IMG/VR virus record: IMGVR_UViG_3300044617_002446
Span: 1 to 64,000 of that record
DNA length: 64,000 nucleotides
Direction: 5' to 3' (one strand)
Source of the DNA: a virus
Made by a program: the position numbers and the translations under genes
The notes under the pieces: generated by a model
Databases searched by the model: none
Told to the model about the DNA's origin: nothing
Seen by the model: the letters and a program-made list of their open reading frames with translations, nothing else
Shown: positions 1,826-47,332 of the stretch, in pieces
Layout of the letters: each line of letters opens with the position of its first letter
Numbering within the stretch: the stretch's first letter is position 1

Positions 1826-1837
1826 ATTGTATATGAA
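1821..1837 (-). promoter_or_regulatory. inverted repeat over the start codon and -10 box
   Basis: TTCATAT and ATATGAA form a perfect 7-bp inverted repeat separated by 3 bases. On the - strand the distal arm contains the ATG of the 78-residue gene and the proximal arm overlaps the -10 box. It could be an operator or an RNA hairpin hiding the start codon. In AT-rich DNA a 7-bp repeat alone is weak evidence; its position and the similar sites elsewhere in the window make it notable. Confidence 0.4.
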
Positions 1838-1862
1838 TAATATATTTTTTACATTAAATCAA
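1834..1862 (-). promoter_or_regulatory. sigma-70-like promoter for the small - strand genes
   Basis: On the - strand TTGATT (1857-1862) is followed after 17 bases by TATTCA (1834-1839). The start codon of the next gene lies 8 nt past the -10 box, so the expected transcript begins within a few bases of the ATG. It lies directly downstream of the terminator at 1878-1907 and restarts transcription there. Confidence 0.5.
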
Positions 1863-1877
1863 GATTTTTTTACAAAA

Positions 1878-1907
1878 AAAAACTTTACCAAAAATGGTAA
1901 AGTTTTT
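1878..1907 (-). terminator. rho-independent terminator, probably bidirectional
   Basis: There is a perfect 12-bp stem (arms 1878-1889 and 1896-1907, with ACTTTACC and GGTAAAGT cores) around a 6-base loop. It is flanked by an A run on the left and a T run on the right, so it can terminate in both directions. It lies 20 bases after the stop of the 189-residue structural gene and ends the - strand late operon. Confidence 0.88.
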
Positions 1908-1927
1908 AATTTTAAATTTTAATTTTT

Positions 1928-2497: not shown

Positions 2498-2572
2498 AAT
2501 TAATTGTTTGTTTGTTTAAAAATATTACCTATATTGATAATACACATGTATATTGTATCATGGGAATAGTTT

Positions 2573-3922: not shown

Positions 3923-3945
3923 TTTTAAAATTAATATATTAGATA

Positions 3946-6900
3946 TTACGGCTGATATGTTATATATAATGTATTTACACTGCTTGTTACAAATTGCCCT
4001 GTACTTCCAATTACTGGTGGCATTGTATAGTTTGGCGTATAATTTATTCCAGTGTAACCGTTAATTATTGTACCTGTTCCACCGTTATTTGAATAGGTGA
4101 CATTAAATACCCCAGAAATTGGAGTAGTTGAATTTGCAGTTATTGATTTTTCAGATATATTTGATATTAAAAGTTGTTGATTTCCAATTTTAAATGAAGA
4201 ATTATAATTGACATTTTCTCCTGGTAAGGTGAACCTTGATCCAGTAATGATGAATGTTAAATTTGCATTTGCAGGGCCAACAGTTGGATATATAGATTGT
4301 ATAATTGGGGCGCCAAGATATGCATATTGATAAGAAAGAGCAGGAAGTCCTCCGCCGCTAACAGTTGCGGTTATTTTTCCAATTGTTGAATTTGGTGGAA
4401 CAATTCCTTCTATTGCTGTTTCAGAAATAGATGTTAATGTTGCTGTTCCCGTTCCAAATTTTACAACTGAGTTTGTAGGTATATCTGAGCCAATTATTGT
4501 AAATTTATTTCCTCCGGCAAGTGGACCAGCGTTCGGGCTAAATGAGGTTATACTCATGTTTCCAATATATCTATATCCACCGTTTAATGTAAATGAGCCT
4601 CCGCTATGATTGACGGTAACGTTTTTAAATCCAGGGGTTGATGCTGGGGCTATAACTCTTAATCTAGTATTTGACGAAGAAATATGTTGCGCTTTTATTC
4701 CACCTATGAAAACTTCAGCTAATGAAGCGTATGGTATGACGTGCAATCCTGATCCACTTATATCAACAAAGTTTCCTCCTGCTGTTGTACCTACAGATGG
4801 TGACAGACTTGTTATAACGGGTCTCTCCAAATACATGATTGTATTTGTTCCTGTGCCGCCAGCATTTGAAACCTCTATAGTTTTTAGTCCAGCAGTATTT
4901 GAAGGAGTTATAAATGATATATTGTCATTTGTAGATGAAATTATTGGGACACTTATTCCTCCTACTTTTAAAGAAGGTTGGCAGTAAAAATTTCCGCCAT
5001 ATATTGTTATATTTTGTCCGCCATTTTGATTTGACCAACTTGGGTTTACTGAATCAATTCTAGGTCTTGCTGCATATATGATATAAGAAGATGGTGTTCT
5101 TTCGGTTCCGGCTTCGGTTTCTATATAAAAATTATAGTATCCTGCAGAATTTGAAGCCGATACATTGGCTATTAATTCTGTTTCGCTGGCATTTATATTA
5201 GATATTGATATATTTGATCCTCCAATATTTAATCTTGTTAAATTAGAATTTAACAAATTTTGACCTGATACAATAATTTGTTGAGTTGTTCCGGTTCTTA
5301 TGCATGAAGGATTAACGCTGGTTATGATTGGCGCATTGGCGTATCTATAGCCATTGTTTAATACTGAAGTTGTATTATATCCGCTTATTGTCACATTTTT
5401 ACGTCCGACGCTTATTCCACTTGGTGTTTTACCAGAAATCAGACTTGAAGAAATTAATATAGGATTTATTATTTCTTTTCCGTCTATGAATGCTTTTGTA
5501 TTTTCATCAAAATTAAAACCAGAAATGTTTACATTTTGTGTTCCGTGTAATATTCCTGTAGACGGTTTTATGGAAGAAATTGTTGGTGCAAAAACATATC
5601 TAAAAGCATTGTTTAGTTCGGTACTATATTGGTCGAATGTTTCTACTTTTATTTTTCTAAACCCGGTTACTGCTGATGTTGGTAGGGTTGCGTCTATGGA
5701 AGTTTCAGATATATTCGAAGGTGTTAAGGCTACATAATTTAATGCAGCGTTTTCCATAAAAAGTTTTGTATGTCCACTTACAAAGTTGGATCCTGTTATT
5801 TTTATATTATTTTGCAATGAAGCTAAGCCTGCTGATGGTGAAACGCTTAATATATTAGGCTGCCCAAATATTCTTATTTGACGTCCGGTGTTTCCTCCTG
5901 CAGCAGAAACAAAAAGTGTATATTCACCAGCTTCATTTACCTTTGGTATAGTGCAATTTATAGAATTATTTGTTGAACTTAAAATAGCAAGTTGCGTTTG
6001 GGAGTTGTTGCGATTTATTGTTACTTTAAGCGGGTTATTAAATTGAGATCCATTTATTGTTATATTTCCTCCATTTGGACCAAATTTATCAGGATTGATA
6101 GATGTTATAATTGGTGGATTAAGGTAATTGATTTGACCAACGATTCTAGTCCCACTAGCATTTGTAATGCTGATATTTCTAGATCCTAATGTATTGAAAG
6201 AAGGCGTTTCAAAAAATAAAATATTATCTGATGGCACATAAAAATTTGAAGCTGTTACAGAGTCTACTGTTAAGTTTTTTATTGTTGAAAAACCTGAACC
6301 AGAAATCTTTATTGAAGTGGTTGCTCCAAGGTTAGAATAGTTTGGTTCTATTTTTGACGCAACGGGAGGATAATGTATAACCTCAACCCTAGCTCTAAAA
6401 AATACACTGCCTACTTTTGGAACAGAAAATGTATATGTTTTTCCGTCTCCGGTTATTGTGGACATTCTTGTCCAGTTGATAAGGTTTCCGCTTTCTACTA
6501 TATAGCGCCTATCTTTTGTAGTTGGAACAAAAAAGTCGAAGGTGCTTGGAGACGAATTGTAAGATATAAAATATCTCGAAGAAGATGAGGTTGGATCGGT
6601 TTTAAATACAAACTCTCTTATATTGTTTTGTCCGTCGTTATCAGAATCTACTACATGGTGATTAATTGAAGATTTAAAATTTGGATTTACTGATCCAGTG
6701 GTATATATAATTTGCGGTTGTTGATAGCTCCAATTTTTACCCCATGGAGTAGGAACGCCTTCTCCACCGCCATAACATTCAATAAATGTTAAACCGCCAA
6801 TTGGGGGATACGTTGCGCCGATTGGCACTATTGATGTTTTTGGAGCAAGCGTCAAAATGCACCTGCCGTCTCTACATTCTATTCTATTTTGTCCAGCAGA

Positions 6901-9900
6901 ACCTGCTTGTATTCCGCTTTCTAGATATATAGAATGTGTTGATGTTGATTGAGATGGAGAGCTATAATATATTGCGTTTGGAGAGCTGTATGTATTTCCA
7001 GCAGCAGTCCATCCTGTTATTGTAAATGTATCAAAATTTAAATTTTGTGGAAAATATAAATTATCCCAAGAGTCCGGAATATTATCTTGATTTAGGTCGA
7101 TTGACCTTGGATATACTGGCGGCTGTTGTGGAGTTGGGGCGCTTACTGCCGACTGTGGGGTTATAAATATTGAACCAACAAGATCGGGTATATCTATTAT
7201 TGAAAATGCATTTTTTAAAGTAGAAACGCCAAGTTTGTTTTCTATTGTTATATCATAATTTCCAATTTCTAAATTTGTTGGTGCATCAAATGTAAGAGTC
7301 TCTTGTGACGTGCCTCCATATGGCGGTGTGCCACCAAATAAGGACGAGTCAAATTGAGCAACTTTTGTACTATTTAAAAATACTTCAGATATTCCTATAG
7401 TCTTTCTAAAAAAGCCAGAAACTGTGATTCTGTATCCGCCTGTGTAAACACCACTAGCTGTTAAAGAATAATTATTGGGACCAAACATTTTTGGATTTGT
7501 TGAGCCATTGTTTGATATTGCGGCAACGGCTTTTATGCTTGGTGGAATAAATGGCATTATAGATACGGGCAATTCATTTACAATTGTTTCTATTCCTGAA
7601 TTGATTTGTATTACGTCTGAATATTCAGAATTTGTTCGCTGATTTATATATCTTTGATTTGAAAGGTCTGTGTAAAAAATTCCATTGTCATATTCTGTAG
7701 AATCAACAACATTTTCTATTGAAAGAGACCCAGATGAACCAACTGAATTTGGATTTGAAGTGTAATTTCCAAGATAATTAAATGGATCATTAAATTTTAT
7801 CCAGGAAAATAAAAATTCACCAGTATTTGGAGAAAGAACCCATGAACTTGGAATATTAGAACGTGAATTTATTGTTTGTTGACTGGTTGAATTTTCTGCA
7901 TATTTTAAATAATCTCCTCTAAAAATATTAGCCCAACCATATTTGGTTTTCAAAAACGTAAACGGACTTCTGTCCATTGAGCCGGAAAGTGTTATTGCGT
8001 TTATTCCGTCTCCGCTAATTATATTTTTGGAATTTGTTCCTATGCTTTCTGTGTTTACTTGTACAAGGGTGCCTATTTTTGCATTATTTGGTAGATTTAA
8101 TTGAAGAGTGTTAGATGTGCCGGGATTAGCCATCGTAACAATGTTTTTTTTGCAAAAATTAAGAGTTTCTAAGTTAGAAAAAATTGCACCATAATTGTGG
8201 CGAATTTTATTCCAATCGTCATTTAAAAAATTGTTGTTTGTGGAGCCGTCGTGATACCATAATTTAAAGCCCATATCTTCTGTTGTGAAAACTGGATTTG
8301 AATTATAATATTCAAGTGTATTTATAAATTTAGCACCGGAAAGTGCTGAATTAGACAATACTCCAGAAACAACAGGTGTTCCGCTATATCCTGAAAATGT
8401 TTCAATTGTTCCAGTATAAGGGGCTAAAGTTCCGCTTTCAAATGCGTCAAAATTTCCGGTTCTATAAATAAAATTAAAAGGATAGCTTTCATTATAAAAG
8501 TCTTGATTGTCACCAGTAAAGCTTTTTCCGCCTGAAACATCTAATGGATGAGCAAAGTGAATTCCTGATGCGTATGAGAATAATGGATAAAATTTTAGTA
8601 ATCCACTATTTATTATTGATTTAAACGCTGTATCGTTTTTTATTGAGAAGAAGTTTGCAAAGCCGCTTAATGAAAAAGAATTTATTAAATTTGTTGATTT
8701 TTGATCAAAAGATTGATTTTCAGATGGTGAAGAAAACGTTCCGGAAAGTCCTGTCTTTATTGTCTTGGCTACGCCAGACATAAATCTTGCTTTTTCGTTA
8801 AAAAGTGAATTTACATATGCTTCTTCGCCTTCAAAATCATAATTATAGTCGCCACTGTAATAAACTTGCTGTATTGTCGTGTATATCGGCGTAATATTTG
8901 TTAAAACCGTATTTTTTGCAATTAGTTCATATTTTTGGTAGGGTATTTTGGCTACTGCGCCACTTGGATTTTGTTCCTGTATTGTTAGCTTTACTCCGTT
9001 TATTTTTGCATTTATAGGAGATTTTAATGCGCCACCCTGTTCGTCTGGAATTTCATCATATGGGTTCCAAGTTAATCCACTTATTATAACAGAATCAATG
9101 GGTACTGGACCGTATAATGTAAAGTTATCTTGATATATAGAGCCGAATTGTGGCTCCATTAAATAATCTAATCCAGATGCGTATACTGTTCCGCCTTCGC
9201 CTTGTAGTTTTATTGATTTTAATCCAGCTGGGTAATTTGGTTGAACGCAAGAGCCCATATATTCACCCAAGCACCCGCCGGATCCAGGAGCTGTTAAAAA
9301 TGTAAGTTTATTGTTAGAAACATATTTTACATTTAGCATTTCGCGCCAATCAAAATACCCTTGTTGAATAAAAACTCGAGCGCCAGATAAGCCCTTTCCT
9401 TCGATTGTTACAAATTGACCGCCTCCGGATGGTGAATAGTTTGGATATATTTTTTCTAGAAGAGGTCTATTTGAGAAAAAGATAGCGTTTTCTAGTGTTC
9501 CGGTTTGTCCAAAAGAAACAACTTGTACATTAGCGCTTCCGGTTATTCCTGTGGGGTAAATTAAATCTATAACGCTACCATAATCTCCATAATTACTAAA
9601 ACTATTAATATTTACATTTTGTCCATTTATTCTTACAGCGGGTGATGAGCCAAAGTTTTTTCCGTAAATTTGACCATATGTTCTATTTACATAAAAAGAA
9701 GAAGAGTCATTGAATGGGTATACGTATTGAATATCAAGACTGGGTGCCGTTGATGGATTTACTCCATTGACAATTGGACTTGGTTGAGTATATGATGCTT
9801 GAACTGCTGTTTGCGTTGATTGGCTTTCTGCAATAGATTGAAACTCCACATTTACAGTTCCTGCGCCAGAAATAACCGGAGGTACAATTAATTCTCCGGA

Positions 9901-12211: not shown

Positions 12212-12227
12212 AATGAGTTTATTACAC

Positions 12228-12677: not shown

Positions 12678-12683
12678 AAATTT

Positions 12684-12855: not shown

Positions 12856-12884
12856 TTGACTTATAGATAAATAACTTTTAATTT
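12856..12884 (+). promoter_or_regulatory. second promoter, directly before the dNMP kinase gene
   Basis: TTGACT (12856-12861), 17 bases, then TAATTT (12879-12884). The ATG at 12893 is only 8 nt past the -10 box, giving a leaderless or nearly leaderless message that skips the structured RNA upstream. The -10 is less perfect than the -35. Confidence 0.45.
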
Positions 12885-12892
12885 ATAAAAAA

Positions 12893-13567
12893 ATGACAAA
12901 AGAAGAAATTGATATTTCAATAAGTGAAAATTCAAATTTTCAAAATAAAATAATAATTGGTGTTTCTGGATACGCAAGATCAGGTAAAAATACGCTATCG
13001 GAAGTAATTAAAAACTATTGCTTGTCCAAATCAATAGATGCAAAAATATTTTCTTTTGCTTTTGCTCTAAGATTAGATTTAAATTCTTTCTGCAAAGAAA
13101 AGTTTAACATATCAGCATTTACAGAGCAAACAGAAGAAAAAACAAAAATAAGACCTCTATTGATCTCATATGGAGAAGTTCAAAGAAGAATATCAAAAGG
13201 CTCTTACTGGTGGAATAAATTAAAGCCAGAAATTAATAACTTTTTTAAGAACGGCGGCGACGTAGCTATAATTTCTGATTTAAGGTTTAAAGAATACGAT
13301 TTTGATGAAATCGATTTTATTAGATCTTACCCAAACAATTTAATATATTGTGTCACAAGAAAAAACGAGCACGGCGAAATTGTACCGGCTGCGCACGAAT
13401 CAGAAGTCGAAAACTTTCCAAAAATCTGCAAAAAAGCAGACGTGCACCTAACATGGGAAACTGTAGACGTAAACTCACAAGAGTTGGTTTTTAATTCACT
13501 GCCCGTTTTAAATTCTTTATCAAAAAGAATATCAAATTGTTTAAATAACGATAAAAAAGAAAGCTAA
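12893..13567 (+). CDS. deoxynucleoside monophosphate kinase
   Basis: This enzyme phosphorylates dNMPs to dNDPs for phage DNA synthesis in the cytoplasm (T4 gp1-like family). The P-loop GYARSGKNT is at about 26-34. Further motifs are SYGEVQRR, with the family-typical Gln-Arg, and SDLRFKEYDF, a D-x-R-F signature. The C-terminal part contains the AAHESE segment seen in this family. The length of 224 residues is normal. It is the first + strand gene after the control region and is followed 2 bases later by a sigma factor gene, so nucleotide supply and the transcription switch share one message. There is no SD; the start follows an A-rich leader. Confidence 0.85.
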   Translation: MTKEEIDISISENSNFQNKIIIGVSGYARSGKNTLSEVIKNYCLSKSIDAKIFSFAFALRLDLNSFCKEKFNISAFTEQTEEKTKIRPLLISYGEVQRRISKGSYWWNKLKPEINNFFKNGGDVAIISDLRFKEYDFDEIDFIRSYPNNLIYCVTRKNEHGEIVPAAHESEVENFPKICKKADVHLTWETVDVNSQELVFNSLPVLNSLSKRISNCLNNDKKES

Positions 13568-13569: not shown

Positions 13570-14166
13570 ATGAATTATTGGGACGAATGTGATAATCCAG
13601 AGCTGGAAATTATTAAAAAAGCAAAAAACGGCAATGAAGAAGCTATTAGTCATTTAATAGATTCTCATAGCGGAATATGCGTCAATGTATACAAAAAATA
13701 CCTATCTCCAGGTATAGCGCCTCAGTATGTTCAAGATGATATTATAAATAGTAAAAATTATATTATCTACAACTCAATAAAAAGCTACGACCCAAGTCAC
13801 GGCAGTAAGTTTTCAACCTGGCTTGCGAATCAGGTTAGATTCTACTGTTTAAATTGTATAAACAAAAACAAAAAGCATAAATTTTCAGAAGTAGAGAATA
13901 TAGAAAACCTTTCGGAAAATGAAGAGCCAAAATGGAACCCGTATGACGAAAGCCTTAAAAAAGACAGAATAGACCAACTAAAAGAGTTAGTTGATTCGAT
14001 AGACGATAAAAAAATTAAAACATTAATACAAAAAAAATATTTTTCTGAAAAAAATAAAGTAGTTTCATTTACTGAAATAGCCAAAGAAATGGGCGTAACA
14101 GTGCAAACCGCTATCAACTGGCATAATAAATTTATTAATTTCGCAAAAACAAAAATCAAAAATTAA
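13570..14166 (+). CDS. phage-encoded RNA polymerase sigma factor (sigma-70 family)
   Basis: The 198 residues cover sigma regions 2 and 4. Region 2 (about 15-95) shows AKNGNEEAISHLI, a DDIINSKNYIIYNSI helix and the core motif YDPSHGSKFSTWLANQVRFY, the classic kFsTwa promoter-melting helix. Region 4 (about 150-198) contains a helix-turn-helix (FTEIAKEMGVTVQTAINWH). The protein should redirect host RNA polymerase to phage promoters, most likely those of the - strand late genes, which lack TTGAC-type -35 boxes. It overlaps no gene and lies 2 bases after the dNMP kinase. Being short and lacking region 1.1 is normal for phage or ECF-like factors. Confidence 0.85.
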   Translation: MNYWDECDNPELEIIKKAKNGNEEAISHLIDSHSGICVNVYKKYLSPGIAPQYVQDDIINSKNYIIYNSIKSYDPSHGSKFSTWLANQVRFYCLNCINKNKKHKFSEVENIENLSENEEPKWNPYDESLKKDRIDQLKELVDSIDDKKIKTLIQKKYFSEKNKVVSFTEIAKEMGVTVQTAINWHNKFINFAKTKIKN

Positions 14167-14167: not shown

Positions 14168-14195
14168 TTGATTTTCTTATAAAAAACCTTATTAT
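14168..14195 (+). promoter_or_regulatory. sigma-70-like promoter
   Basis: TTGATT (14168-14173), 16 bases, then TATTAT (14190-14195); the ATG at 14211 is 15 nt further on. It lies immediately after the sigma factor stop and gives the SSB-like and glycosyltransferase genes their own start. Confidence 0.55.
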
Positions 14196-14210
14196 AAAAA
14201 ATACCAATAT

Positions 14211-16049: not shown

Positions 16050-16078
16050 TTGACCAAAAAAACAAAAGCATGTAATCT
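16050..16078 (+). promoter_or_regulatory. sigma-70-like promoter of the nrdB-nrdA-dut operon
   Basis: TTGACC (16050-16055), 17 bases, then TAATCT (16073-16078). The start codon of nrdB follows 26 nt past the -10 box, the longest leader among the promoters seen. The -10 box is itself the left arm of an inverted repeat that ends on the start codon. Confidence 0.6.
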
Positions 16079-16105
16079 ATACTCTGCCATCTTTTATATA
16101 GATTA
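16073..16105 (+). promoter_or_regulatory. inverted repeat from the -10 box to the nrdB start codon
   Basis: TAATCTATA (16073-16081) and TATAGATTA (16097-16105) are perfect 9-base inverted repeats separated by 15 bases. The left arm is the -10 box and the right arm ends on the A of the ATG. A protein binding here would block the promoter. In read-through transcripts the RNA hairpin would sequester the start codon, while transcripts from the local promoter would lack the left arm. The AATCTA core is shared with the site at 20306-20328. Confidence 0.5.
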
Positions 16106-19189: not shown

Positions 19190-19234
19190 AATAAAAATAA
19201 AATCAATTTAATTTTATTTGTGTATTAATTATTA

Positions 19235-19647: not shown

Positions 19648-20295
19648 ATGGAAGAAGGCTTTACTCAAAAATTAAAAAAAACATTTAAAGACTATATTGG
19701 ATATATAGTAATATGCGTATTTATTATTTTAGGAACAGTTGCGAAAGACATTTCTGTTAAATATTTTCAAAATCAAGAATGGAGTTTTTATTCTTTAAAT
19801 AAAGACGCGAAAAGGAATGTTAAAATAACAGAACTTGTTTCTCAAATAAGAGAAATAGCAAATGCTGAAAATGTAACAGTTTTTCTTTTTCATAACGGGG
19901 GCTTTTTTAGTTCTGGAGTACCATATAGAAAAAAATCACCCGCATTTGAATCAAACTCACCACTAAAAATTGGCAAAAACTACAAATACGAAAACGTACC
20001 GCTCACACAGGTTTCAGAATTAATAAAAGAACTTACAGAAAACAATCAGGGTTTTTTTGTTAGAACTTCTTCAATTCAAAACGGAACATGGAAAGCGATG
20101 TTATTGGAAAGCGGCTACGAATACAATTTTTATACAAGCCTTAGAATTGGCGAAAAAATGATAGGGTATATAAAAATATCTTGGGAACTTGAGCTTGAAA
20201 ATGCAGAAAAGCAAAGACTTTCAAATCAAGTAAGTAGTTTTTCTTTAATAATAAGCTCACTGCTTGCTGAAAAAGAGCTTGATTTATTTAAATAA
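19648..20295 (+). CDS. membrane-anchored GAF-like protein
   Basis: The 215-residue protein has a short cytoplasmic N-terminus and one hydrophobic segment at about 18-34 (IGYIVICVFIILGTVA). The soluble domain that follows has a GAF-like pattern: a helix (ITELVSQIREIANAENVTV), a strand with the phage-typical FHNGG, a long loop and a final IGYIKISW strand before a helix. GAF domains bind small ligands or mediate dimerisation. In some large phages similar proteins occur without known function. The membrane anchor suggests a sensor or a lysis/envelope-related role. No output domain is present. Confidence 0.5.
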   Translation: MEEGFTQKLKKTFKDYIGYIVICVFIILGTVAKDISVKYFQNQEWSFYSLNKDAKRNVKITELVSQIREIANAENVTVFLFHNGGFFSSGVPYRKKSPAFESNSPLKIGKNYKYENVPLTQVSELIKELTENNQGFFVRTSSIQNGTWKAMLLESGYEYNFYTSLRIGEKMIGYIKISWELELENAEKQRLSNQVSSFSLIISSLLAEKELDLFK

Positions 20296-20306
20296 ATAAA
20301 TATAAT
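20279..20306 (+). promoter_or_regulatory. strong sigma-70-like promoter
   Basis: TTGATT (20279-20284), 16 bases, then a perfect TATAAT (20301-20306). The ATG at 20316 is 9 nt downstream, so the message should be nearly leaderless. The promoter lies inside the end of the preceding gene and reads into the sugar cluster. A 23-base palindrome begins at the last base of the -10 box. Confidence 0.7.
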
Positions 20307-20328
20307 CAATCTAATATGATTAGATTGA
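20306..20328 (+). promoter_or_regulatory. 23-base palindrome centred on a start codon (operator candidate)
   Basis: TCAATCTAAT and ATTAGATTGA are perfect 10-base inverted repeats separated by only the three bases of the ATG start codon (20316-20318). It covers the expected transcription start of the promoter just upstream. A dimeric repressor bound here would block the sugar cluster. In RNA the loop is too tight for a good hairpin, so a DNA operator is the more natural reading. Confidence 0.65.
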
Positions 20329-24746: not shown

Positions 24747-25778
24747 ATGAAAAAAGTTATTATAACCGGCGCTACTGGAATGGATGGCAGTTTAATGGCT
24801 GATTATTTATTAAATAACACAGATAATCTAGTTGTAGCCGGAATAAGAAGGCTAAGCAATACTAATCATAAAAACATAGACCATTTAAAATTAAACCCCA
24901 GGTTTAAACTAATTGATTTAGATGTAACTGATTCTAATAATGTAGAGCAAGTAATAAGGCTAGAGCAACCGGATTTTTTTATAAATTTTGCGGCAAACTC
25001 ATTTGTTGGCAATAGCTGGACAATGCCAGTCAACCATATGCAAACGAACTGCATGGCGGTTTTATATCAATTAGAGGCTATAAGAAAATTTGTTCCTAAT
25101 TGCAGATATTATAACGCAGGATCTTCCGAAGAATTTGGTGACGTTGTTGCTGTTCCACAAAATGAAAATCACCCACTAAGACCAAGAAGCCCATATGGGG
25201 CATCAAAAGCCGCAGCAAGAATGCTTGTTAAAGTATATAGAGATTCTTATAATTTATATGCTATACAGGGCTGGCTATTTAATCATGAAGGCGTTAGAAG
25301 AGGAATTGAATTTGTTACAAGAAAAATAACATCAAATATAGCAAGAATTAAAAAGGCTTTAGATACCGGTGTAAATTTTGAACCGGTTGAGCTTGGCAAT
25401 TTAGATGCAAAAAGAGATTGGTCGGATGCAGAAGATTTCGTTGAAGGTGTGTGGAAAATGCTGAATCAAGAAACACCAAAAGAATACGTGCTTTCTTCTA
25501 ACGAGACGCATACAATTAGAGAGTTTTTAGAACTATCTTTCAAAGAAGTTGATATACAAGGATACTGGGAAGGAAAAAATCTCGATGAAAAATTTATACA
25601 TGGCAAAACCGGACAGGTAGTTTTGCAAATAAATTCAAAATTTTACAGACCAGCCGAAGTAGATATTTTATTTGGAGACTCATCTTTAGCCAGAAAAGAA
25701 TTAAATTGGACACCTAAAATATCTTTTGAGCAACTTGTAAAAAAGATGGTTCAAAATGATTTAAATTTGTGTAATTGA
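24747..25778 (+). CDS. gmd: GDP-mannose 4,6-dehydratase
   Basis: This enzyme converts GDP-mannose to GDP-4-keto-6-deoxymannose. The 343-residue SDR has the nucleotide loop GATGMDG (8-14), NFAANSFVG, the catalytic Ser/Glu region NAGSSEEFG and the YxxxK in SPYGASKAAAR. GWLFNHEGVRRG and RDWSDAEDFVEG are hallmarks of GDP-mannose dehydratases as opposed to dTDP-glucose dehydratases. GDP-mannose must come from the host, since no mannose-activating gene is in the window. The neighbouring reductase and methyltransferases would complete a methylated GDP-6-deoxyhexose pathway. Confidence 0.9.
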   Translation: MKKVIITGATGMDGSLMADYLLNNTDNLVVAGIRRLSNTNHKNIDHLKLNPRFKLIDLDVTDSNNVEQVIRLEQPDFFINFAANSFVGNSWTMPVNHMQTNCMAVLYQLEAIRKFVPNCRYYNAGSSEEFGDVVAVPQNENHPLRPRSPYGASKAAARMLVKVYRDSYNLYAIQGWLFNHEGVRRGIEFVTRKITSNIARIKKALDTGVNFEPVELGNLDAKRDWSDAEDFVEGVWKMLNQETPKEYVLSSNETHTIREFLELSFKEVDIQGYWEGKNLDEKFIHGKTGQVVLQINSKFYRPAEVDILFGDSSLARKELNWTPKISFEQLVKKMVQNDLNLCN

Positions 25779-25782
25779 TAGT

Positions 25783-25974
25783 ATGCACCATGTTATGGAC
25801 GGTCAAGAAAAAATGGACACATGCGCCCATAGATCAGACGCAAAAGAGGTTTTTGTAGGGTGTCCATGCAGGGGACAGAAAAAAACTGTTTATGAATGTA
25901 TAGCCAGAAGCATACCAGAAATCCACTCTGCAATTTGCGCGGGCTGCCCTTTATATAAAAATAAAAATAGTTGA
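25783..25974 (+). CDS. small cysteine-rich protein
   Basis: The 63-residue protein has six cysteines (CAHRS, GCPCRGQKK, ECIAR, CAGCPLY), spaced as in small zinc-binding modules that often sit beside phage and bacterial glycosyltransferases. It could stabilise or regulate a transferase in this cluster; no activity is implied. Later in-frame ATGs make a shorter form possible. Its TGA stop is part of the -35 box (TTGACT) of the next promoter. Confidence 0.55.
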   Translation: MHHVMDGQEKMDTCAHRSDAKEVFVGCPCRGQKKTVYECIARSIPEIHSAICAGCPLYKNKNS

Positions 25975-26004
25975 CTTTTATTAAAAAAAAGAATATCCTA
26001 TAAT
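25971..26004 (+). promoter_or_regulatory. promoter elements with unusually wide spacing
   Basis: A perfect TTGACT (25971-25976) and a perfect TATAAT (25999-26004) occur in order but 22 bases apart, too far for a normal sigma-70 promoter. Either an activator or a bend compensates, or only the -10 box is used. The TTGACT contains the stop codon of the gene before. Confidence 0.4.
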
Positions 26005-26021
26005 CACTAAAAAAGTGATTA
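26001..26021 (+). promoter_or_regulatory. inverted repeat enclosing a GTG start codon
   Basis: TAATCACT and AGTGATTA are perfect 8-base arms around five A bases. The left arm overlaps the -10 box and the right arm contains the GTG start of the 141-residue gene. It could be an operator, or an RNA hairpin limiting translation of the recombination genes downstream. Confidence 0.5.
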
Positions 26022-27936: not shown

Positions 27937-28235
27937 GTAAAGAAAAATATAATCAAAATTTTGAGCTACCTGAATCAATTTTATCTCAAATGGAAGAGAT
28001 GAGTGGTGGCGGATATATAATATTTATTTTAGATGCAGGAAACACGCCCTCAGTGTACGAAAGTTTTGATGGATACGGACAAGAAAGCCAGGTTAAAAAT
28101 TTTGCATTAGACTTTTTACAGGCGGAAAGAGAGGCTAGAAAAGAAATATTTAAAAGAGATATAATTGCGAATATGGAAAATCAAAACGACGACGACGAAG
28201 AAGAGGAGGAGGGCGATCAAGATAATACTGATTGA
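27933..28235 (+). CDS. small hypothetical protein with an acidic tail
   Basis: The 100-residue protein has a small folded part (GGYIIFILDAGNTPSVYESF, then a helix ALDFLQAEREARKEIFKRD) and a C-terminal run of Asp, Glu and Asn. The acidic tail could mimic DNA or contact the neighbouring helicase or recombinase; this is inference. Its TGA stop is part of the -35 box of the dnaB promoter. Confidence 0.55.
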   Translation: MSKEKYNQNFELPESILSQMEEMSGGGYIIFILDAGNTPSVYESFDGYGQESQVKNFALDFLQAEREARKEIFKRDIIANMENQNDDDEEEEEGDQDNTD

Positions 28236-28260
28236 CCTTTATCAAAAAAAGCGTTATTAG
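28232..28260 (+). promoter_or_regulatory. sigma-70-like promoter of the helicase operon
   Basis: TTGACC (28232-28237), 17 bases, then TATTAG (28255-28260); the ATG of the helicase follows 14 nt later. The -35 box contains the stop codon (TGA) of the upstream gene. This is one of the few non-coding gaps in the operon. Confidence 0.6.
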
Positions 28261-28274
28261 TTTGGTGAACCATA

Positions 28275-30696: not shown

Positions 30697-31685
30697 AAAA
30701 AATAAACTACCTTAGTGCGTCAAAAATAAAAACTTTAAACAGTTGTACTTGGCAATATTATTGTGCTTATGAACTTGGAATTCCTCAAAAATCAAACAGC
30801 GGCGCAAGTCGCGGGACTATTGTTCATAATCTTTTTGAACTTATATCAAAACCAAAGCACCAGCATTATATAAATAAAATATGGGTATCTGGTTCTCCAG
30901 AAAAAGTGCCACAGATTAAAAAATTTCTTATAAATGAATTCAAAAAACAAAAAATATCACTAACTGAAGAAGTTAAACCAATTAAGTCAAAATATGGTAA
31001 AAAAAACAATTGGGACACCATATGCGACATGATTCTGACTACTTTAAAACATGAATTTATAGCAATAAATCATTCTAAAATAATAGATTCAGAATATGAA
31101 TTTAATATAGTAAATGAAAATCCAAAGTATGCTGTAAGAGGTTTTATTGACAGAGTAGAAATAGAAAACGAAAATACAATAAAAATATTAGACTATAAAA
31201 GTTCTTCCAAAAAGTTTTCCGGAGAAGATGAGGAGTCAAATATTCAGGCAATGATATATTCGCTTGTTGCTAGAAAAATATGGAAAAATTATAAAAACTA
31301 TACTGCTTCATTCTTTTTTATGAGATTCCCAGAAGATCCATATCAAAATAGTGAATTTTCAAAAAATGAACTAGATGGATTAGAACACTATTTAGAATAT
31401 ATTTCTGAAATATTGGAAAATTTCGACATTAAAAAAGCAAAATCATCAATGGCTGCATTTGACAATGCAAAATCATGGCTTTGCGGAAGAGGCAGCTGGG
31501 TTTGCCCGTATAAAAATGCTTTGACTTTTTTTAAAGTTTTTGAAAAAAATAACGATGAAAAAAAATATATATCTTCGCATTTTGAATTAAAGGATGCCGA
31601 AGAAAAAATTTCTAAAAATAAAAAAGAAGATGTCTGGGACATAGAAATGGTAGAATATACCGGTTGTCCGGCATTTAGTATTTGA
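30681..31685 (+). CDS. Cas4/RecB-like PD-(D/E)XK exonuclease with probable Fe-S cluster
   Basis: This 334-residue nuclease has the RecB/Cas4 layout: SASKIKTLNSCTWQYYC at the N-terminus, GTIVHNLFEL with the metal-binding His, RGFIDRVEI, the catalytic ILDYKSS and QAMIYSL. A cysteine pair near the start and a CGRGSWVC pair near residue 270 fit a four-Cys iron-sulfur cluster that pins the ends together, as in Cas4/AddB. No CRISPR array or other cas gene is in the window, so it most likely processes ends for UvsX-type recombination. It overlaps the primase gene by 16 bases, and its TGA stop lies in the next promoter. Confidence 0.78.
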   Translation: MEETIKKINYLSASKIKTLNSCTWQYYCAYELGIPQKSNSGASRGTIVHNLFELISKPKHQHYINKIWVSGSPEKVPQIKKFLINEFKKQKISLTEEVKPIKSKYGKKNNWDTICDMILTTLKHEFIAINHSKIIDSEYEFNIVNENPKYAVRGFIDRVEIENENTIKILDYKSSSKKFSGEDEESNIQAMIYSLVARKIWKNYKNYTASFFFMRFPEDPYQNSEFSKNELDGLEHYLEYISEILENFDIKKAKSSMAAFDNAKSWLCGRGSWVCPYKNALTFFKVFEKNNDEKKYISSHFELKDAEEKISKNKKEDVWDIEMVEYTGCPAFSI

Positions 31686-31710
31686 CTAAAAATTAAAAAA
31701 AACCTATACA
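31682..31710 (+). promoter_or_regulatory. sigma-70-like promoter of the DNA polymerase operon
   Basis: TTGACT (31682-31687), 17 bases, then TATACA (31705-31710). The ATG lies 10 nt further. The -35 box contains the TGA stop of the nuclease gene. A 6-base inverted repeat (ACCTAT, six bases, ATAGGT; 31702-31719) straddles the -10 box. Confidence 0.65.
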
Positions 31711-31720
31711 TTAATAGGTG

Positions 31721-33131: not shown

Positions 33132-35729
33132 ATGTTTATAAAAGAATTCACAAAATTAAATCTTCCATTTCATGGTGTTATATGTCCAAAAATAAGTTTG
33201 GATAAAAAAGATCGCATAGAATATGAAATTACCGAAGGAGCTACAAATCTTGAAATTTTGCAAGCACTTTGTAATAAAGGCTTTAAAAGCATGTTGCCGA
33301 AATGGAAAGATGAAGGCGCAGATATTCAGTCTTATAAAGATAGAGCAAAACTAGAAGTTGAAACATTAAATAAGTTGAATTTTGTTGATTATATACTTAT
33401 TGTATGGGATGTTTTTAATTTTTGTAAGAAAAACGACATACCAACAGGATTAGGTAGAGGTAGCGCGGCCGGAAGTTTGGTTCTTTATCTGCTTGGTGTA
33501 ACAGGCGTAGATCCGGTAAAGTACGGTTTGTTTTTTCAAAGATTTGTTTCAGAGGCAAGGGCTAAGCAAAAAATAGTTGACGGTACGACATATTTAGATG
33601 GAAAAATGATTGCTGACATTGATAGTGATATTTGCTATTATAGAAGAAAGGAAGTTATGAAGTATTTGGATGAAAAATACCCAGAAAGAACATCAAAAAT
33701 GCTCACGGTTTCAACTCTTTCTGGAAAGGCTCTTATTAAAGACTGCGGAAAGATTATAGGTGAAAAAGAGGAGGTAGAAATGAATAAGATAACATCATTG
33801 TTTACTTCTAAATATGGAAAAGTTGCTGAACCCGAAGAAATGTATGAATCTAGTGAGGAATTTAAAAACTGGTGTGATGAAAACGCCTTAGTTTATTCGA
33901 CTGCTTTAAAATTAAAAAACCTTATTAGAAATAAGGGGGTTCACGCCTCTGGAATACTTGTAAGTCATGATAAACTTATAAAAACAACCCCAACAGAGCT
34001 TACAGCCGATAAAGAGATAGTTTCATCATTTACAATGGATTGGGCTACAAAAATAAATATTAAACTAGATCTACTGGGCTTGAAAAGCGTTTCTGTAATT
34101 CATGAAGTTTCAAAAATAACAGGAATAGATTATAAAAATGTTGACTTAGAAAACTATGAGAAAATATATGCTCATCTTCAAGACTTAAAGCACCCCAAGG
34201 GGTTATTTCAAATTGAGGCGGATGTAAATTATAAAGTTTGCCAGAAAGTCAAACCAAAAAATCTAGATCAATTAAGCGCGGTTGTGGCACTAGCCAGACC
34301 AGGTGCGCTTGACTATGCTGATCAATATGCCACGTATGCCATTACAGGGGTAAAGCCGGAAATCGATCCAATTATAGAATCCGTGCTAGAAAAAACAGGA
34401 AATATTTGCTTATATCAAGAGCAAGTAATGTCTATGTTTAATAAAATTGGATTTTCACTAACAGATTCAGAAGAAATTAGACGCGCAATCGGTAAAAAAC
34501 TTCCAGAAGAGGTAGCAAAATGGAAGCCTAAAATTTATCAACAATGTGAAAAACAAGAAATAAAAAAAGAAACAGCTGATCAGATCTGGAAAGTCTGTGA
34601 AGACAGCGCGAATTATCAATTTAATTTATCTCACAGTATTTCATATGGTGCCATGTCTGCTCTCACTACTTATTTTAAGTTTAATCATCCAAAAGAATTT
34701 TTTCTAGCGTTATTAAAAATGGCTAAGAATGAACAAGATTCGTTAAATGAAATAAATATCATTTCACAAGAAATGAAACATTTTGGAATAACTTTACTGC
34801 CGCCAGATCTAGCAAAAAGTGGTGAAGATTTTGAAATTGAAGGAAATAATATCAGGTATGGTCTTTCTGCAATTAAGGGGATTAGCAAAAAGATTATAGA
34901 AAAGATGATAAACTTTCGAAATAGTTATTCTTCAAAAATTGATTTATTTATAGCTGCAAAACAAGCTAAAATATCAATTGGAGTTTTATCTGCACTTATT
35001 CAAGCCGGCGCATTGGAAAGTGTAAATAGCAAATCAAGAAGCCGCCTGGTATTAGAGGCACAAACATGGAATTTACTTAAAGATAAAGAAAAAATAATTG
35101 TAAAGCAATTAATTGATGAATGCAAGTATTCCGATATTTTGCTTTGCGTTAAAGCCATGTCTGAATCAATAAAAGACGAAAAAGGAAAACCCTTAATTAG
35201 AGAATCTAGATTTAAAACAATTAAAAAAGATTACGATAAGTTTAAAACTATTTACTTGTTAAATAGCCGCAACGAAGAGCTTGCGAATTTCTTTTACGAA
35301 AAACAACTTCTTGGCATGCCATATAGCCAAAGTCTTTCTAAAATTTATTCTAAAAAGAATGAAAATATAAAACAAATTTATGACATAAACAATCTGGAAG
35401 ACAAACAAGCAGGACTTTTTGTTGGAATAGTAAACGACATTTTAAAAAGAACATCGAAAAATGGAAACCCATATATTAAATATAGTATTGTAGATGAAAG
35501 CGATACAATAGATTGTTTTCTTTTTTCTTCTGCCAGGAGAGATAAGGTTGCTGAATGCAAAGAATTTAATGGAGGAAAACTTCCAGAAGAAGGGGATATT
35601 GTCGTAGTAAAAGGAACAAAAAAAGATGGTAAAGCTTGCTATATTGAAAAGCTAGGCATCCAAAGCGCAAAAATATATATGGCTTTAAGAGAAATAAAAG
35701 ATATAGATTTAATTGAAGATGATGCTTAA
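33132..35729 (+). CDS. DNA polymerase III alpha-type (C-family) polymerase lacking its PHP domain
   Basis: This is the replicative polymerase. The palm motif GLGRGSAAGS is at about 105-115, followed by LYLLGVTGVDP. The first catalytic pair is in ADIDSDICYYRR (about 161-172) and the third Asp in KLDLLGLKSV at about 312. LYQEQVM and EIRRAIGKK belong to the fingers. An HhH motif (GISKKIIEKM) and an OB-fold (LFVGIVNDILKR) follow near the C-terminus. It begins directly at the segment that in whole DnaE follows PHP. The 865 residues plus the 251-residue PHP protein add up to a normal DnaE size. No clear beta-clamp-binding tail was identified. Confidence 0.9.
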   Translation: MFIKEFTKLNLPFHGVICPKISLDKKDRIEYEITEGATNLEILQALCNKGFKSMLPKWKDEGADIQSYKDRAKLEVETLNKLNFVDYILIVWDVFNFCKKNDIPTGLGRGSAAGSLVLYLLGVTGVDPVKYGLFFQRFVSEARAKQKIVDGTTYLDGKMIADIDSDICYYRRKEVMKYLDEKYPERTSKMLTVSTLSGKALIKDCGKIIGEKEEVEMNKITSLFTSKYGKVAEPEEMYESSEEFKNWCDENALVYSTALKLKNLIRNKGVHASGILVSHDKLIKTTPTELTADKEIVSSFTMDWATKINIKLDLLGLKSVSVIHEVSKITGIDYKNVDLENYEKIYAHLQDLKHPKGLFQIEADVNYKVCQKVKPKNLDQLSAVVALARPGALDYADQYATYAITGVKPEIDPIIESVLEKTGNICLYQEQVMSMFNKIGFSLTDSEEIRRAIGKKLPEEVAKWKPKIYQQCEKQEIKKETADQIWKVCEDSANYQFNLSHSISYGAMSALTTYFKFNHPKEFFLALLKMAKNEQDSLNEINIISQEMKHFGITLLPPDLAKSGEDFEIEGNNIRYGLSAIKGISKKIIEKMINFRNSYSSKIDLFIAAKQAKISIGVLSALIQAGALESVNSKSRSRLVLEAQTWNLLKDKEKIIVKQLIDECKYSDILLCVKAMSESIKDEKGKPLIRESRFKTIKKDYDKFKTIYLLNSRNEELANFFYEKQLLGMPYSQSLSKIYSKKNENIKQIYDINNLEDKQAGLFVGIVNDILKRTSKNGNPYIKYSIVDESDTIDCFLFSSARRDKVAECKEFNGGKLPEEGDIVVVKGTKKDGKACYIEKLGIQSAKIYMALREIKDIDLIEDDA

Positions 35730-35740
35730 AAAATTATAAT
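35713..35740 (+). promoter_or_regulatory. sigma-70-like promoter inside the polymerase gene end
   Basis: TTGAAG (35713-35718), 16 bases, then a perfect TATAAT (35735-35740). The ATG at 35753 is 12 nt further. The -10 box sits in the middle of a 9-base inverted repeat. Confidence 0.5.
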
Positions 35741-35751
35741 AATTTAAGCAT
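35722..35751 (+). promoter_or_regulatory. inverted repeat flanking the -10 box
   Basis: ATGCTTAAA (35722-35730) and TTTAAGCAT (35743-35751) are perfect 9-base arms around 12 bases that contain TATAAT. The right arm ends one base before the ATG. There is no T run, so it is not a terminator. As DNA it is a symmetric operator candidate around the -10 box. Confidence 0.5.
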
Positions 35752-35752
35752 T

Positions 35753-38626: not shown

Positions 38627-38633
38627 TTTAAAT

Positions 38634-39863: not shown

Positions 39864-39864
39864 A

Positions 39865-41647: not shown

Positions 41648-41650
41648 ATT

Positions 41651-42328: not shown

Positions 42329-42332
42329 AATA

Positions 42333-45300: not shown

Positions 45301-47282
45301 CTTATTATACTTTTATCTAATTCAATAGCGTAAGCAAAAACATTTTTACTATTTGTTCCCGATCTCACGTCATAAGTTAAAAAAGCATTTCTATTAGAGT
45401 TATAGATAAGTGTATTTTTGATTATTTGCGGAAAATTTTTAATAGAAAAAACGTATCTAGTATTTGCTTCATTAAGAGAAGTATAAAAGTTTTCTGCCAG
45501 AGAAGGCTTTTCATTTACTTTTACAAAGTATTCTGAATTAAGATAATTAGAAAAATTATGAACAATTTGAAAAGCTGGATCTTTTTCAGAAAACGTATTC
45601 GGGTTTATATACCCGTTCGATATTAAAGAATTTTTATAATCCTCATTAAATCCAGGATCACTCGACCAATTATCAGCAGAATAAAAATAAAAATAATTTT
45701 TGTCTAAACCACGATATATATCAACCTTAGGATCTGAAATATATTTATATTCAAAATTTAAACCAGTAACAACTTTTCCAGAAAGAGAACTTCCAGATAT
45801 CTTTAAAAAAGAATTTAATGAAAATGAAGCCTGACCTGTTGGCATTTTGATAAAGTAATCAGAAGGCTCATATGACCAGCCAACTGTTTTATCTATTTTT
45901 TGTAATTTTTTATTAATCGCCGTATCTATTTCAAAATTTTCTACACTAGGGTCTCCACTTCCACCGATAACGATACTTAAAGGTGTTTTTAAAAAATCAA
46001 CATATTTTAAACCATTATCCACAATAGTTTGTGTAAATCCCCAACCATTAAAGGCATATAAAAAATTTTTATTATAATTATTAAAAGCAAACTCATCACA
46101 TTTCTCATCTCCAATCCCTAAAATACTACCATCATTTAAAACTACCACAAACCCATTCGCTCCAGCGTTTACATAAACTGCACCCGTTATAGAATTTAAA
46201 TATGCAAAATCTTGAAAAGATCCAACGCCAGTCGCAAAAACTCTGCCAAATTTTTCATTAATAGAGTTTTCATATATAATTATTGTTTTAAACTCGCCTG
46301 CAGAAATTTCTTTAACAAAAGAAAATACTGGTATATTTCTTTGACCAAAAAAGTTATCTCCACGAGAAAAAATTTGACCATTTTTATTTAAAAATAAAGA
46401 ATGAGAATAGCCTGCTGAAATATAGTCTACATTTACTAATGTATCTAAATTTGATATTTGACCACTACTATTACTACCAATACCTGTTACCGTACCGTCT
46501 TCAAATAAAACAAGAGAATAACCATTTCCAGCGGCTGCATATTTAATATTCTTTTGTAAGGAGTTTATATTTTCAAAATTTATTTGCCCACTATAATTTG
46601 CACCCCATCCAGTCACCCTATAAAGATTTTCATTTTTTTTAGTTATATCAACAATGGCTTGCACAGAAAAACTATTTGTAGAATTAAGCAAAAGATTTCT
46701 TGTCGTTGGATAAATTTCTAAAGAAAAAGATTCATCTTTTTTTAAAGAAAAGTTCCCAGTAAAAAAAAATGGAAATTGGGATCTTTCGTCTAGAATTTTT
46801 TCATTTTGATTTGGATATTTTTTAACACAAATACCAGCATCAAACATTCCTGTAATTGTTATGTTTTTTTCAAATCCAGAAAACGGATCCGATGACGAAA
46901 GAGGAATCCACATTGGGCTTGCCCAACTACCTGTAATTGGAGTTGAAAAATCATAAAAACCAGTTGGACTAGAATAATTTATATTATATTTTACAGATTC
47001 AGTAGAAACTTGTGGCAAATAAACCCCAACAGCGTGATCATATCCAGCAGAAATATTATTAAAAAATAAATTTGACACACCAACCGATGCAAAATTCAAA
47101 ACGCCAGAAACATTTGTACCCCATCCCTGTATGTTAGAATTTTCATTTAATATTAAAGAATAATCAGGTGCAACAGACATAAAAACAGGAGAAAAACTTT
47201 CTCCACCTTTTGACCTGTTATCCTTTGTTAAACCAAACCCCGATATCGAAGTTAAAGTATCCCTTTTTATCTTTTTTCGCAT
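42333..47282 (-). CDS. giant tail protein with N-terminal RCC1-like beta-propeller
   Basis: The 1649 residues begin with RCC1/BLIP-II-like blades at about 25-430: repeated G-W/I-G-x-N-x-x-GQ and SAGYSHSLFL units (for example VTGIGSNSSGQIS, then YISAGYSHSL, then FSRGDNFFGQ). The rest is beta-rich, with very frequent Ser/Thr-Gly dipeptides, several GxxxFS-type strands and an acidic linker of Asp/Glu near 1088-1106. The C-terminus is short and ends in a TGSGSSIIIQNI strand. RCC1 propellers are protein- or ligand-binding platforms; here it is probably a host-contacting tail component. No signal peptide or enzyme motif is seen. Confidence 0.75.
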   Translation of the reverse strand: MRKKIKRDTLTSISGFGLTKDNRSKGGESFSPVFMSVAPDYSLILNENSNIQGWGTNVSGVLNFASVGVSNLFFNNISAGYDHAVGVYLPQVSTESVKYNINYSSPTGFYDFSTPITGSWASPMWIPLSSSDPFSGFEKNITITGMFDAGICVKKYPNQNEKILDERSQFPFFFTGNFSLKKDESFSLEIYPTTRNLLLNSTNSFSVQAIVDITKKNENLYRVTGWGANYSGQINFENINSLQKNIKYAAAGNGYSLVLFEDGTVTGIGSNSSGQISNLDTLVNVDYISAGYSHSLFLNKNGQIFSRGDNFFGQRNIPVFSFVKEISAGEFKTIIIYENSINEKFGRVFATGVGSFQDFAYLNSITGAVYVNAGANGFVVVLNDGSILGIGDEKCDEFAFNNYNKNFLYAFNGWGFTQTIVDNGLKYVDFLKTPLSIVIGGSGDPSVENFEIDTAINKKLQKIDKTVGWSYEPSDYFIKMPTGQASFSLNSFLKISGSSLSGKVVTGLNFEYKYISDPKVDIYRGLDKNYFYFYSADNWSSDPGFNEDYKNSLISNGYINPNTFSEKDPAFQIVHNFSNYLNSEYFVKVNEKPSLAENFYTSLNEANTRYVFSIKNFPQIIKNTLIYNSNRNAFLTYDVRSGTNSKNVFAYAIELDKSIISKVYEAVPDVYSAYYYLPLLRVDPFLITGWHSFLNNFSAICLEKEGCEELDDKEPKEICIDGLSGKYGISGGQLPPPGPLYDAFVVDLISGVMKGSVTGIDPSNNSFLYETSTNTGLFSSDSFFSGSSGIIFFGDFFSGDTLSFEPYNFDYTGLYKNIYISNPPYKKISNFNLEFKKDFSTPGDLFNKLNQEFSSYTYNPNRTGFIWYAGLGCNTGIGQTGVFEKIERPLADVFYINPSDYFTNSPSESILKYWSGRIIGYKSNYYHSGGYNIKINKTQRRLDLETGRVDGFKFVLPNSISLYGSQDAKTWSRLHYISNINWTGIDSTIASVPEEYLKNEPFLSDGFGLLSGYTNSGIYDSLYAQTGLDIKTGIDLSGSGFIADPWYRPRSLLKLTKKTVEQAGKWCPPQLFDQEFDIFYIGSGITCKEQEDEGEDEDEDDEEQDGSGDGPFFVESLRTGWLIDFNNLGINPGEAGDVKFNYYKVELQDFKSPIDLVGLNPVDYFKVNKINFFSLDRDNPELQTGLTCWDGGLYEIIPSGNVPVSISGHFTADVRPQDSGVRVFENALMSGRIIGYSSGDYIRFNRASGRIVSNTGYSLYKGPIYATGIFNTGIVDWFYNPTTKEIDTIRSFDAFFASGSGRFSGSYTRIKLDVVNKDLAFGRWLNPTYDVNITTGVTYYTNFQTFDYESGITGYIKSFYNITGISTSGYINYSTGITGSSAGVVIQYKVPTGYKYASGFIKIIEPLLTTNDYLLLNDNLIFYTNNISNNVPPGYFDSFSGLCSILTGEDFGSLFNCSFVINDIDNSIIIISSGIGDSGNLTSFDFYSDFGGINGIKYDGRLSGGETYYQYISGTGLYSGFFEHKNYAMTGYFYNNSGSGFISGPISTYQGEREFSGIWQISTGESLFLDRLFSVPSISDKEVSGSLIGEYSGLYPSKFTIGVSYTNSFGLSNNKDAAKLTVFDKNYIYTTGGNVYITGSGSSIIIQNI

Positions 47283-47326
47283 TATATTTAATATACACTT
47301 TCTTTTTAAAAAAACTAGCCCAACTA

Positions 47327-47332
47327 TATAAT
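47327..47332 (+). promoter_or_regulatory. -10 box (TATAAT) just before a start codon
   Basis: A perfect TATAAT lies 7 nt from the ATG at 47340. No good -35 box is present at 16-18 bases (TTTTAA at best), so it may be an extended or activator-dependent promoter. Its position suggests a leaderless message. Confidence 0.35.

What the first reader, a model, noticed from the sequence alone, without database searches (positions are those of the whole stretch)
1834..47332. Early promoters sit so close to start codons that messages should be leaderless
Sites at 1834-1862(-), 12856, 14168, 20279, 28232, 31682 and 35713, plus the -10 boxes at 25999 and 47327, place the -10 box 7-15 nt from the start codon. 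Starts should fall 0-8 nt before the ATG. Start codons throughout lack Shine-Dalgarno sequences. Together this suggests a programme of leaderless translation, rare as a general phage strategy.
Basis: partly seen in the sequence, partly recalled or inferred. Interest (0 to 1): 0.62.

Follow-up and report, generated by a model that had tools for sequence, protein, structure and literature searches.

The report
Phage promoters ending at start codons
A large group of uncultured water phages, including this one, places its promoters so tightly against its genes that the messages should begin at or within a few bases of the start codon, a mode of gene expression known from some bacteria but, as far as I could find, not described as a general plan of a phage group.

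Summary
Predicted leaders are 2-9 nt, so this phage is near-leaderless rather than strictly leaderless. The case rests on relatives. In 53 non-redundant loci (670 genes), TTGAC sits 34-41 nt before the start in 64 genes (5.7 expected), most often at exactly 35 and never at 33. With 17-bp spacing and TAnnnT this puts transcription start on the A of ATG. At the helicase gene it is kept in 65 of 80 phages, down to 36% protein identity. A second element, GTGTA at 14-18 nt, precedes 87 genes (1.25 expected). Shine-Dalgarno motifs: 0 of 150 in these classes. New here: at about half of the helicase promoters the -10 box is complementary to the start-codon region, which could hide the start codon in read-through RNA only. 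No 5' end was mapped; the host is unknown.

The parts
12856..12892 (+). Promoter TTGACT (12856-12861), spacer 17, TAATTT (12879-12884), 8 nt, ATG at 12893 (dNMP kinase, then sigma-like gene 13570-14166)
   Evidence: Matrix p<0.005, predicted leader about 2 nt; TTGAC at orthologous starts of several relatives
14168..14210 (+). Promoter TTGATT (14168), spacer 16, TATTAT (14190-14195), 15 nt, ATG at 14211
   Evidence: p<0.005; TTGAC in all nine orthologs shown, one as TTGACA-N17-TATAAT-6 nt-ATG
16050..16104 (+). Promoter TTGACC at 16050, 55 nt before ATG 16105 (ribonucleotide reductase-like); longer leader
   Evidence: TTGAC conserved in most orthologs at d=46-51; a member of the class that is not leaderless
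20279..20327 (+). Promoter TTGATT (20279), spacer 16, TATAAT (20301-20306), 9 nt, ATG 20316; inverted repeat TCAATCTAAT-atg-ATTAGATTGA with the ATG as loop
   Evidence: p=0.01; 10-bp stem, shuffle p 0.006
25769..25782 (+). Second-class element GTGTA 14 nt before ATG 25783 (small Cys-rich protein)
   Evidence: GTGTAATATAnnn-ATG conserved at this start in most relatives; class statistics
25971..26021 (+). Promoter TTGACT (25971), spacer 17, TATCCT (25994-25999) or TATAAT (25999-26004), GTG at 26015; inverted repeat TAATCACT-aaaaa-AGTGATTA over the start codon
   Evidence: Highest matrix score in the genome, p<0.005; 8-bp stem, 0 of 500 shuffles
28232..28274 (+). Promoter TTGACC (28232), spacer 17, TATTAG (28255-28260), 14 nt, ATG 28275 (DnaB-like helicase); the TGA of TTGAC is the stop of the upstream gene
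   Evidence: p=0.005; TTGAC in 8 of 9 orthologs of the close group and 65 of 80 relatives
31682..31720 (+). Promoter TTGACT (31682), -10 TATACA (31705, spacer 17) or TACATT (31707, spacer 19), ATG 31721 (PHP domain; the GTG at 31718 is less likely the start)
   Evidence: p=0.01; ATG supported by relatives; orthologous start has the promoter in distant relatives
35713..35752 (+). Weak site TTGAAG (35713), TATAAT (35735-35740), ATG 35753
   Evidence: p=0.08; TATAAT-like box conserved in orthologs, -35 not
1826..1862 (-). Weak site TTGATT (1862), TATTCA (1839-1834), ATG at 1825; inverted repeat TTCATAT-aca-ATATGAA over the start
   Evidence: p=0.04; stem shuffle p 0.03; promoter not conserved in orthologs
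47327..47332 (+). TATAAT 7 nt before ATG 47340, without a matching -35
   Evidence: Seen, but not among the 24 best matrix scores; similar box in one relative only
12212..12227 (-). Second-class element GTGTA 16 nt before ATG 12211
   Evidence: class statistics
47283..47298 (-). Second-class element GTGTA 16 nt before ATG 47282 (1649-aa RCC1-repeat protein)
   Evidence: for the domain
956..972 (-). Second-class element GTGTA 17 nt before ATG 955 (GIY-YIG/NUMOD3 protein)
   Evidence: for the domain
19220..19234 (+). Second-class element GTGTA 15 nt before ATG 19235
13570..14166 (+). Phage-encoded sigma-70-like factor, candidate reader of the GTGTA class
   Evidence: PHROG 351, E 2.8e-13; orthologs in 9 of 12 relatives; the link to GTGTA is inference

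Best explanation
These are real sigma-70-type promoters (TTGAC, 17-bp spacer, TAnnnT, often TGnTAnnnT) placed at the downstream limit compatible with a complete message, so RNA begins at or a few bases before the start codon. Step 1 (shown): promoter elements lie at a fixed, minimal distance from the start in many phages. Step 2 (inferred from standard sigma-70 geometry): +1 falls on the A of ATG when TTGAC is 35 nt upstream, and 2-9 nt before it at most sites in this window. Step 3 (inferred): such messages are translated by 5'-terminal AUG recognition, without Shine-Dalgarno pairing. Step 4 (inferred): host polymerase with its main sigma factor reads the TTGAC class first, and another factor, perhaps the phage's own sigma, reads the GTGTA class, also leaderless. 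Genes behind the first of each operon are translated by some other SD-independent route. The likely ultimate cause is a host whose own genes are expressed this way.
For: TTGAC at d=34-41: 64 of 670 genes against 5.7 in dinucleotide shuffles, peak at d=35 (25 genes), 0 at d=33, 0 at 26-30. Full pattern TTGAC-N17-19-TAnnnT-N4-10-ATG: 49 genes in 39 of 53 loci, 0.3 in shuffles, 0-6 when the window is moved upstream. Helicase start: 64 of 80 phages at d=34-41, 35 of them at d=35, none at 42-65, down to 36% protein identity. Natural contrast: with the promoter the gap to the upstream stop is most often 31 nt (27 of 65), exactly the gap made when the stop TGA lies inside TTGAC; with neither TTGAC nor TTGAT, 6 of 8 starts overlap the upstream gene by 4 nt. 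GTGTA at d=14-18: 87 against 1.25. SD motif 0 of 63 and 0 of 87. Intrinsic terminators whose T-run ends directly at GTGTA-N9-ATG at L113:2000, L130:1671, L147:1027, so those messages must start within the last nucleotides before ATG or arise by read-through. In this window, matrix p-values.
Against: No transcript 5' end has been mapped. In the close group the distribution is broader (d=34-55), so some messages have leaders of 10-20 nt. Start codons come from a simple caller plus ortholog comparison. Loci are related, so counts are not independent events. The sigma reading each class is not shown, and translation from a 5'-terminal AUG is assumed.
Confidence: 0.82

Rival explanations
1. The promoters are real but merely compressed into minimal intergenic space; leaders of 5-20 nt carry non-SD initiation signals and strict leaderless initiation is not selected.
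For: In this phage and its close group predicted leaders are 2-9 nt and up to about 20 nt; A at -3 in 59% of starts suggests a Kozak-like signal.
Against: The wider group peaks at exactly d=35 with a sharp edge and no decline towards it, which space-saving alone does not explain; GTGTA peaks at exactly d=14 in 53 genes.
Confidence: 0.3
2. Chance matches to AT-rich promoter consensus.
Against: Large excess over dinucleotide shuffles and shifted windows, conservation at orthologous starts, absence in lambda, Cellulophaga phi38:1 and T4.
Confidence: 0.03
3. GTGTA is a ribosome-binding signal rather than a promoter element.
For: Its distance to ATG is as tight as that of an SD sequence (d=14 in 53 of 90).
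Against: In the close group it also occurs 35-48 nt upstream, often followed by SD-like motifs; it directly follows intrinsic terminators; it sometimes reads GTGTATAAT.
Confidence: 0.12

Closest known systems
Leaderless 'TA-led' genes of Actinobacteria and Deinococcus-Thermus (PMC3160421; PMC12340547)
   Same: TAnnnT about 10 bp before the start codon, no SD, messages with no or very short leader; in D. radiodurans about a third of genes by a -10 motif adjacent to the ORF.
   Different: Here it is a phage trait, with a well conserved TTGAC at 17-bp spacing, a second non-canonical element (GTGTA), and stop codons embedded in the -35 box.
Lambda leaderless message (cI, by my own knowledge)
   Same: A phage message beginning at the AUG; PMC3160421 names lambda phage as the first leaderless case.
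   Different: One regulatory gene in lambda; here many replication genes over a large phage group. No lambda gene met the full pattern with my caller.
T4 genes e, soc, 49 and I-TevI translational locks (PMC3014915)
   Same: A helix forms only in long read-through RNA and hides the start region; RNA from the adjacent promoter lacks the 5' strand of the helix.
   Different: In T4 the promoter is late and the message keeps a leader with SD; here the 5' strand is the -10 box itself and the 3' strand is the start codon of a leaderless message. Only predicted here.
Bacteroidota SD-less initiation (PMC6847099)
   Same: No SD, A-rich upstream region, A at -3.
   Different: Bacteroidota genomes do not show the leaderless pattern (1063 hits against 1449 in the reversed control), nor does Cellulophaga phage phi38:1.

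Membership tests
Leaderless (TA-led) genes | TAnnnT about 10 bp upstream of the start codon | tested here: met
   49 full-pattern genes against 0.3 in shuffles; six sites in this window p<=0.01
Leaderless (TA-led) genes | No Shine-Dalgarno sequence | tested here: met
   0 of 63 and 0 of 87 class members; 0 of 41 and 0 of 17 in the close group
Leaderless (TA-led) genes | Mapped 5' end at the start codon | not testable with these tools
   No transcript data
Leaderless (TA-led) genes | Predicted leader of zero nt in this phage | tested here: inconclusive
   2-9 nt predicted for the window's sites; zero is the mode in relatives
T4 gene e type start-codon lock | Helix spanning promoter and start codon, present only in read-through RNA | tested here: inconclusive
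   Stems >=6 bp in 43% of TTGAC-class starts against 10% shuffled, not elsewhere; partner swapping z=3.6 for helicase, 1.9 for the rest; relatedness not controlled
T4 gene e type start-codon lock | Read-through transcripts exist and are poorly translated | not testable with these tools
   No expression data
Bacteroidota-type SD-less phage | Host promoter TAnnTTTG | tested here: not met
   The -10 found by EM is TAnnnT; TTTG-type words not enriched

The most novel reading that the evidence does not exclude
The promoter core and the start codon form one self-complementary unit: the -10 box is the reverse complement of the start-codon region, so RNA read through from upstream genes folds the AUG into a hairpin and is silent, while RNA started at this promoter begins at the AUG, lacks the 5' arm and is translated. 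Each such gene would then be translated only from its own promoter, a built-in insulation of leaderless genes.
Probability: 0.35. Interest if true: 0.78.

Novelty: new variant of a known kind. Interest (0 to 1): 0.62.

Why it matters
It would show that leaderless expression can be the standard way to express key replication genes in a widespread phage group, kept over deep divergence, and gives a base-exact prediction of transcript starts that one 5'-end experiment can test. It also means that phage gene finders which expect a Shine-Dalgarno leader will place starts and promoters wrongly in such genomes, and it offers a clue to the unknown host. If the hairpin lock is real, promoter and translation control are written into the same few bases.

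Tried and rejected
Bacteroidota host, suggested by the A-rich, SD-less starts and by a Flavobacteriaceae best hit of the GDP-mannose dehydratase gene (70%): not supported by promoter type. Patescibacteria host: the phylum shows the leaderless pattern (1901 against 694 reversed control; a shifted 20-23 nt version 1309 against 664), and the only genome of 380 with a close helicase relative was a Woesebacteria MAG; but one of that MAG's two phage contigs also carries beta-oxidation genes, foreign to Patescibacteria as far as I know, so mis-binning is likely and the host stays open. The host-phylum comparison covered three phyla only and no PVC genomes. Helicase profile in genome contigs: no relative. 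Inverted repeats in the -35/-10 spacer, noticed by eye in the close group: only slightly above shuffles, and the upstream control region was as high. A first position scan in the close group gave only mild stem excess near starts; the signal became clear only in the promoter-bearing class of the wider group. No cultured relative: best helicase identities in the phage collection are about 27% or less.

Full report
What the window is. The window is bases 1-64000 of an 81,323-base IMG/VR virus record at about 32% G+C. It encodes a DnaE-like polymerase, DnaB-like helicase, UvsX-like recombinase, a dNMP kinase and a sigma-70-like factor, with replication genes on the + strand (about 12.9-40.6 kb) and, on the - strand, very large proteins that look structural. 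Ten close relatives (65-85% helicase or polymerase identity) were found in IMG/VR and their contigs fetched. No close relative exists among 50,697 phage records.

Scored with a matrix trained only on other phages, starts 12893, 14211, 20316, 26015, 28275 and 31721 reach p<=0.01 against dinucleotide shuffles; 1825(-) reaches 0.04 and 35753 0.08; 47340 is not supported. Predicted leaders are 2-9 nt. Relatives carry TTGAC at the orthologous starts.

Shine-Dalgarno. Across 11 genomes, 4- and 5-base SD words before starts are about as common as in shuffled sequence, and A at -3 is 59%. This is a property of nearly all starts, many of which lie 2-4 nt behind the previous stop and cannot be leaderless. 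Among promoter classes, SD motifs are absent from 41 TTGAC-class and 17 GTGTA-class starts, but present in 21% (control 3%) of starts with GTGTA 26-75 nt upstream. So the host ribosome may use SD where there is room for it.

Position of TTGAC. In the close group TTGAC is enriched at -45 to -31, and expectation-maximisation finds TAnnnT at a modal spacer of 17. A helicase profile including distant relatives found 300 phage loci in IMG/VR, of which 80 were kept. At the helicase start, 64 of 80 have TTGAC at d=34-41, 35 of them at d=35. After reduction to 53 non-redundant loci with 670 genes, TTGAC shows 25 genes at d=35, 11 at 36, 8 at 34, none at 33; 64 genes fall in d=34-41 against 5.7 in shuffles. 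With a -35 hexamer, 17 bp, a -10 hexamer and 6 nt, d=35 places +1 on the A of ATG. The sharp edge at this limit is what a selected leaderless start predicts.

Packing. Where the helicase promoter is present, the gap to the upstream stop is most often 31 nt (27 of 65), the value produced when the upstream stop TGA is the TGA of TTGAC; where neither TTGAC nor TTGAT is present, six of eight starts overlap the upstream gene by 4 nt. The space between the genes is the promoter and nothing else.

A second class. The most enriched word before starts in the close group is GTGTA (55 against 9.3 expected), in this window mostly on the - strand. In the wider group it lies at exactly d=14 in 53 genes and at 14-18 in 87, against 1.25 in shuffles. 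Three times a GC-rich intrinsic terminator ends directly at GTGTA-N9-ATG. I take it as a promoter element of another sigma factor, perhaps the phage's own; that assignment is inference.

Controls. With the same caller and pattern, lambda, Bacillus phage Blastoid, Cellulophaga phage phi38:1 and T4 1-50 kb have no full-pattern gene and no GTGTA-class gene; Blastoid has three TTGAC at d=34-41 but a similar density further upstream.

Hairpins. In the TTGAC class, the stretch -21 to +10 holds a perfect stem of at least 6 bp in 43% of genes against 10% in shuffles; the same stretch of other genes shows no excess. Typically the -10 box is one arm and the start codon the other (TACCAT...ATGGTA, TATCAT...ATGATA). 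Swapping partners between sequences lowers the helicase stems from 5.03 to 4.23 bp (z=3.6), the remaining genes less clearly (z=1.9). The predicted chance that the AUG is unpaired in read-through RNA is 0.29 in this class, 0.46 in other genes, and 0.78 in RNA starting at the AUG. The helicase drives most of this (0.23, p=7e-8); members that are neither helicase nor PHP genes do not differ significantly. In this window three starts have significant stems: 20316, 26015 and 1825(-). This resembles the T4 gene e lock (PMC3014915), but relatedness is not controlled, so I treat it as a hypothesis.

Known biology. Leaderless genes with TAnnnT about 10 bp upstream are common in Actinobacteria and Deinococcus-Thermus (PMC3160421), and a -10 motif adjacent to ORFs drives about a third of D. 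radiodurans genes (PMC12340547). SD-less initiation over prokaryotes is compared in PMC5397173. My literature searches found no description of a general leaderless programme in a phage group; they cover open-access papers only.

Host. Unresolved. Patescibacteria genomes show the same promoter geometry more than Bacteroidota or the phylum of the Proteobacteria MAG. Relatives of the phage sit in a Woesebacteria MAG that is probably mixed. One distant relative carries PSCyt2/PSD1 and DUF1501 genes, which from my own knowledge are typical of Planctomycetes and Verrucomicrobia.

Limits. Starts were called with a simple codon-usage caller and ortholog comparison; loci are related; no 5' end is measured.

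Noticed in passing
L067/L113 (IMG/VR 3300049810_002844), L067:13290-16894: PSCyt2/PSD1 and DUF1501 genes sit inside the replication cluster of a distant relative, between the exonuclease and PHP orthologs, the DUF1501 gene behind a GTGTA element at d=16. Possible cargo genes and a hint at a Planctomycetes/Verrucomicrobia-type host, or an assembly chimera.
   Followed up: partly
L079:11666-16502 (G016:C22): Thiolase, enoyl-CoA hydratase/3-hydroxyacyl-CoA dehydrogenase and acyl-CoA dehydrogenase genes follow phage genes at the same site (after the exonuclease ortholog): cargo hot spot, integration junction or chimera.
   Followed up: partly
Patescibacteria genomes: Across 116 genomes the leaderless sigma-70 pattern is 2.7 times its reversed control and exceeds a leadered version in the same genomes (1901 against 1309, Wilcoxon p 3e-8): leaderless expression may be common in this phylum.
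   Followed up: partly
L019 and L020, 10001-13888: The DnaE-like polymerase gene of two relatives (G002, G004) spans about 3.9 kb instead of 2.6 kb, suggesting an inserted intein or intron.
   Followed up: no
window 104-955 (-): GIY-YIG endonuclease with NUMOD3 motifs, a likely homing endonuclease, behind a GTGTA element.
   Followed up: no
window 3946-11160 (-) and 62015 (-) continuing to record position 71350: Giant proteins: 2404 aa with nine IPT/TIG domains, and 3111 aa not characterised.
   Followed up: no
window 16105 region and orthologs: Inverted repeats between the -10 region and the bases before ATG differ in sequence between relatives but keep pairing (TTTACTGT/ACAGTAAA, TTGTTG/CAACAA, AATCTATA/TATAGATT), seen by eye.
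   Followed up: partly
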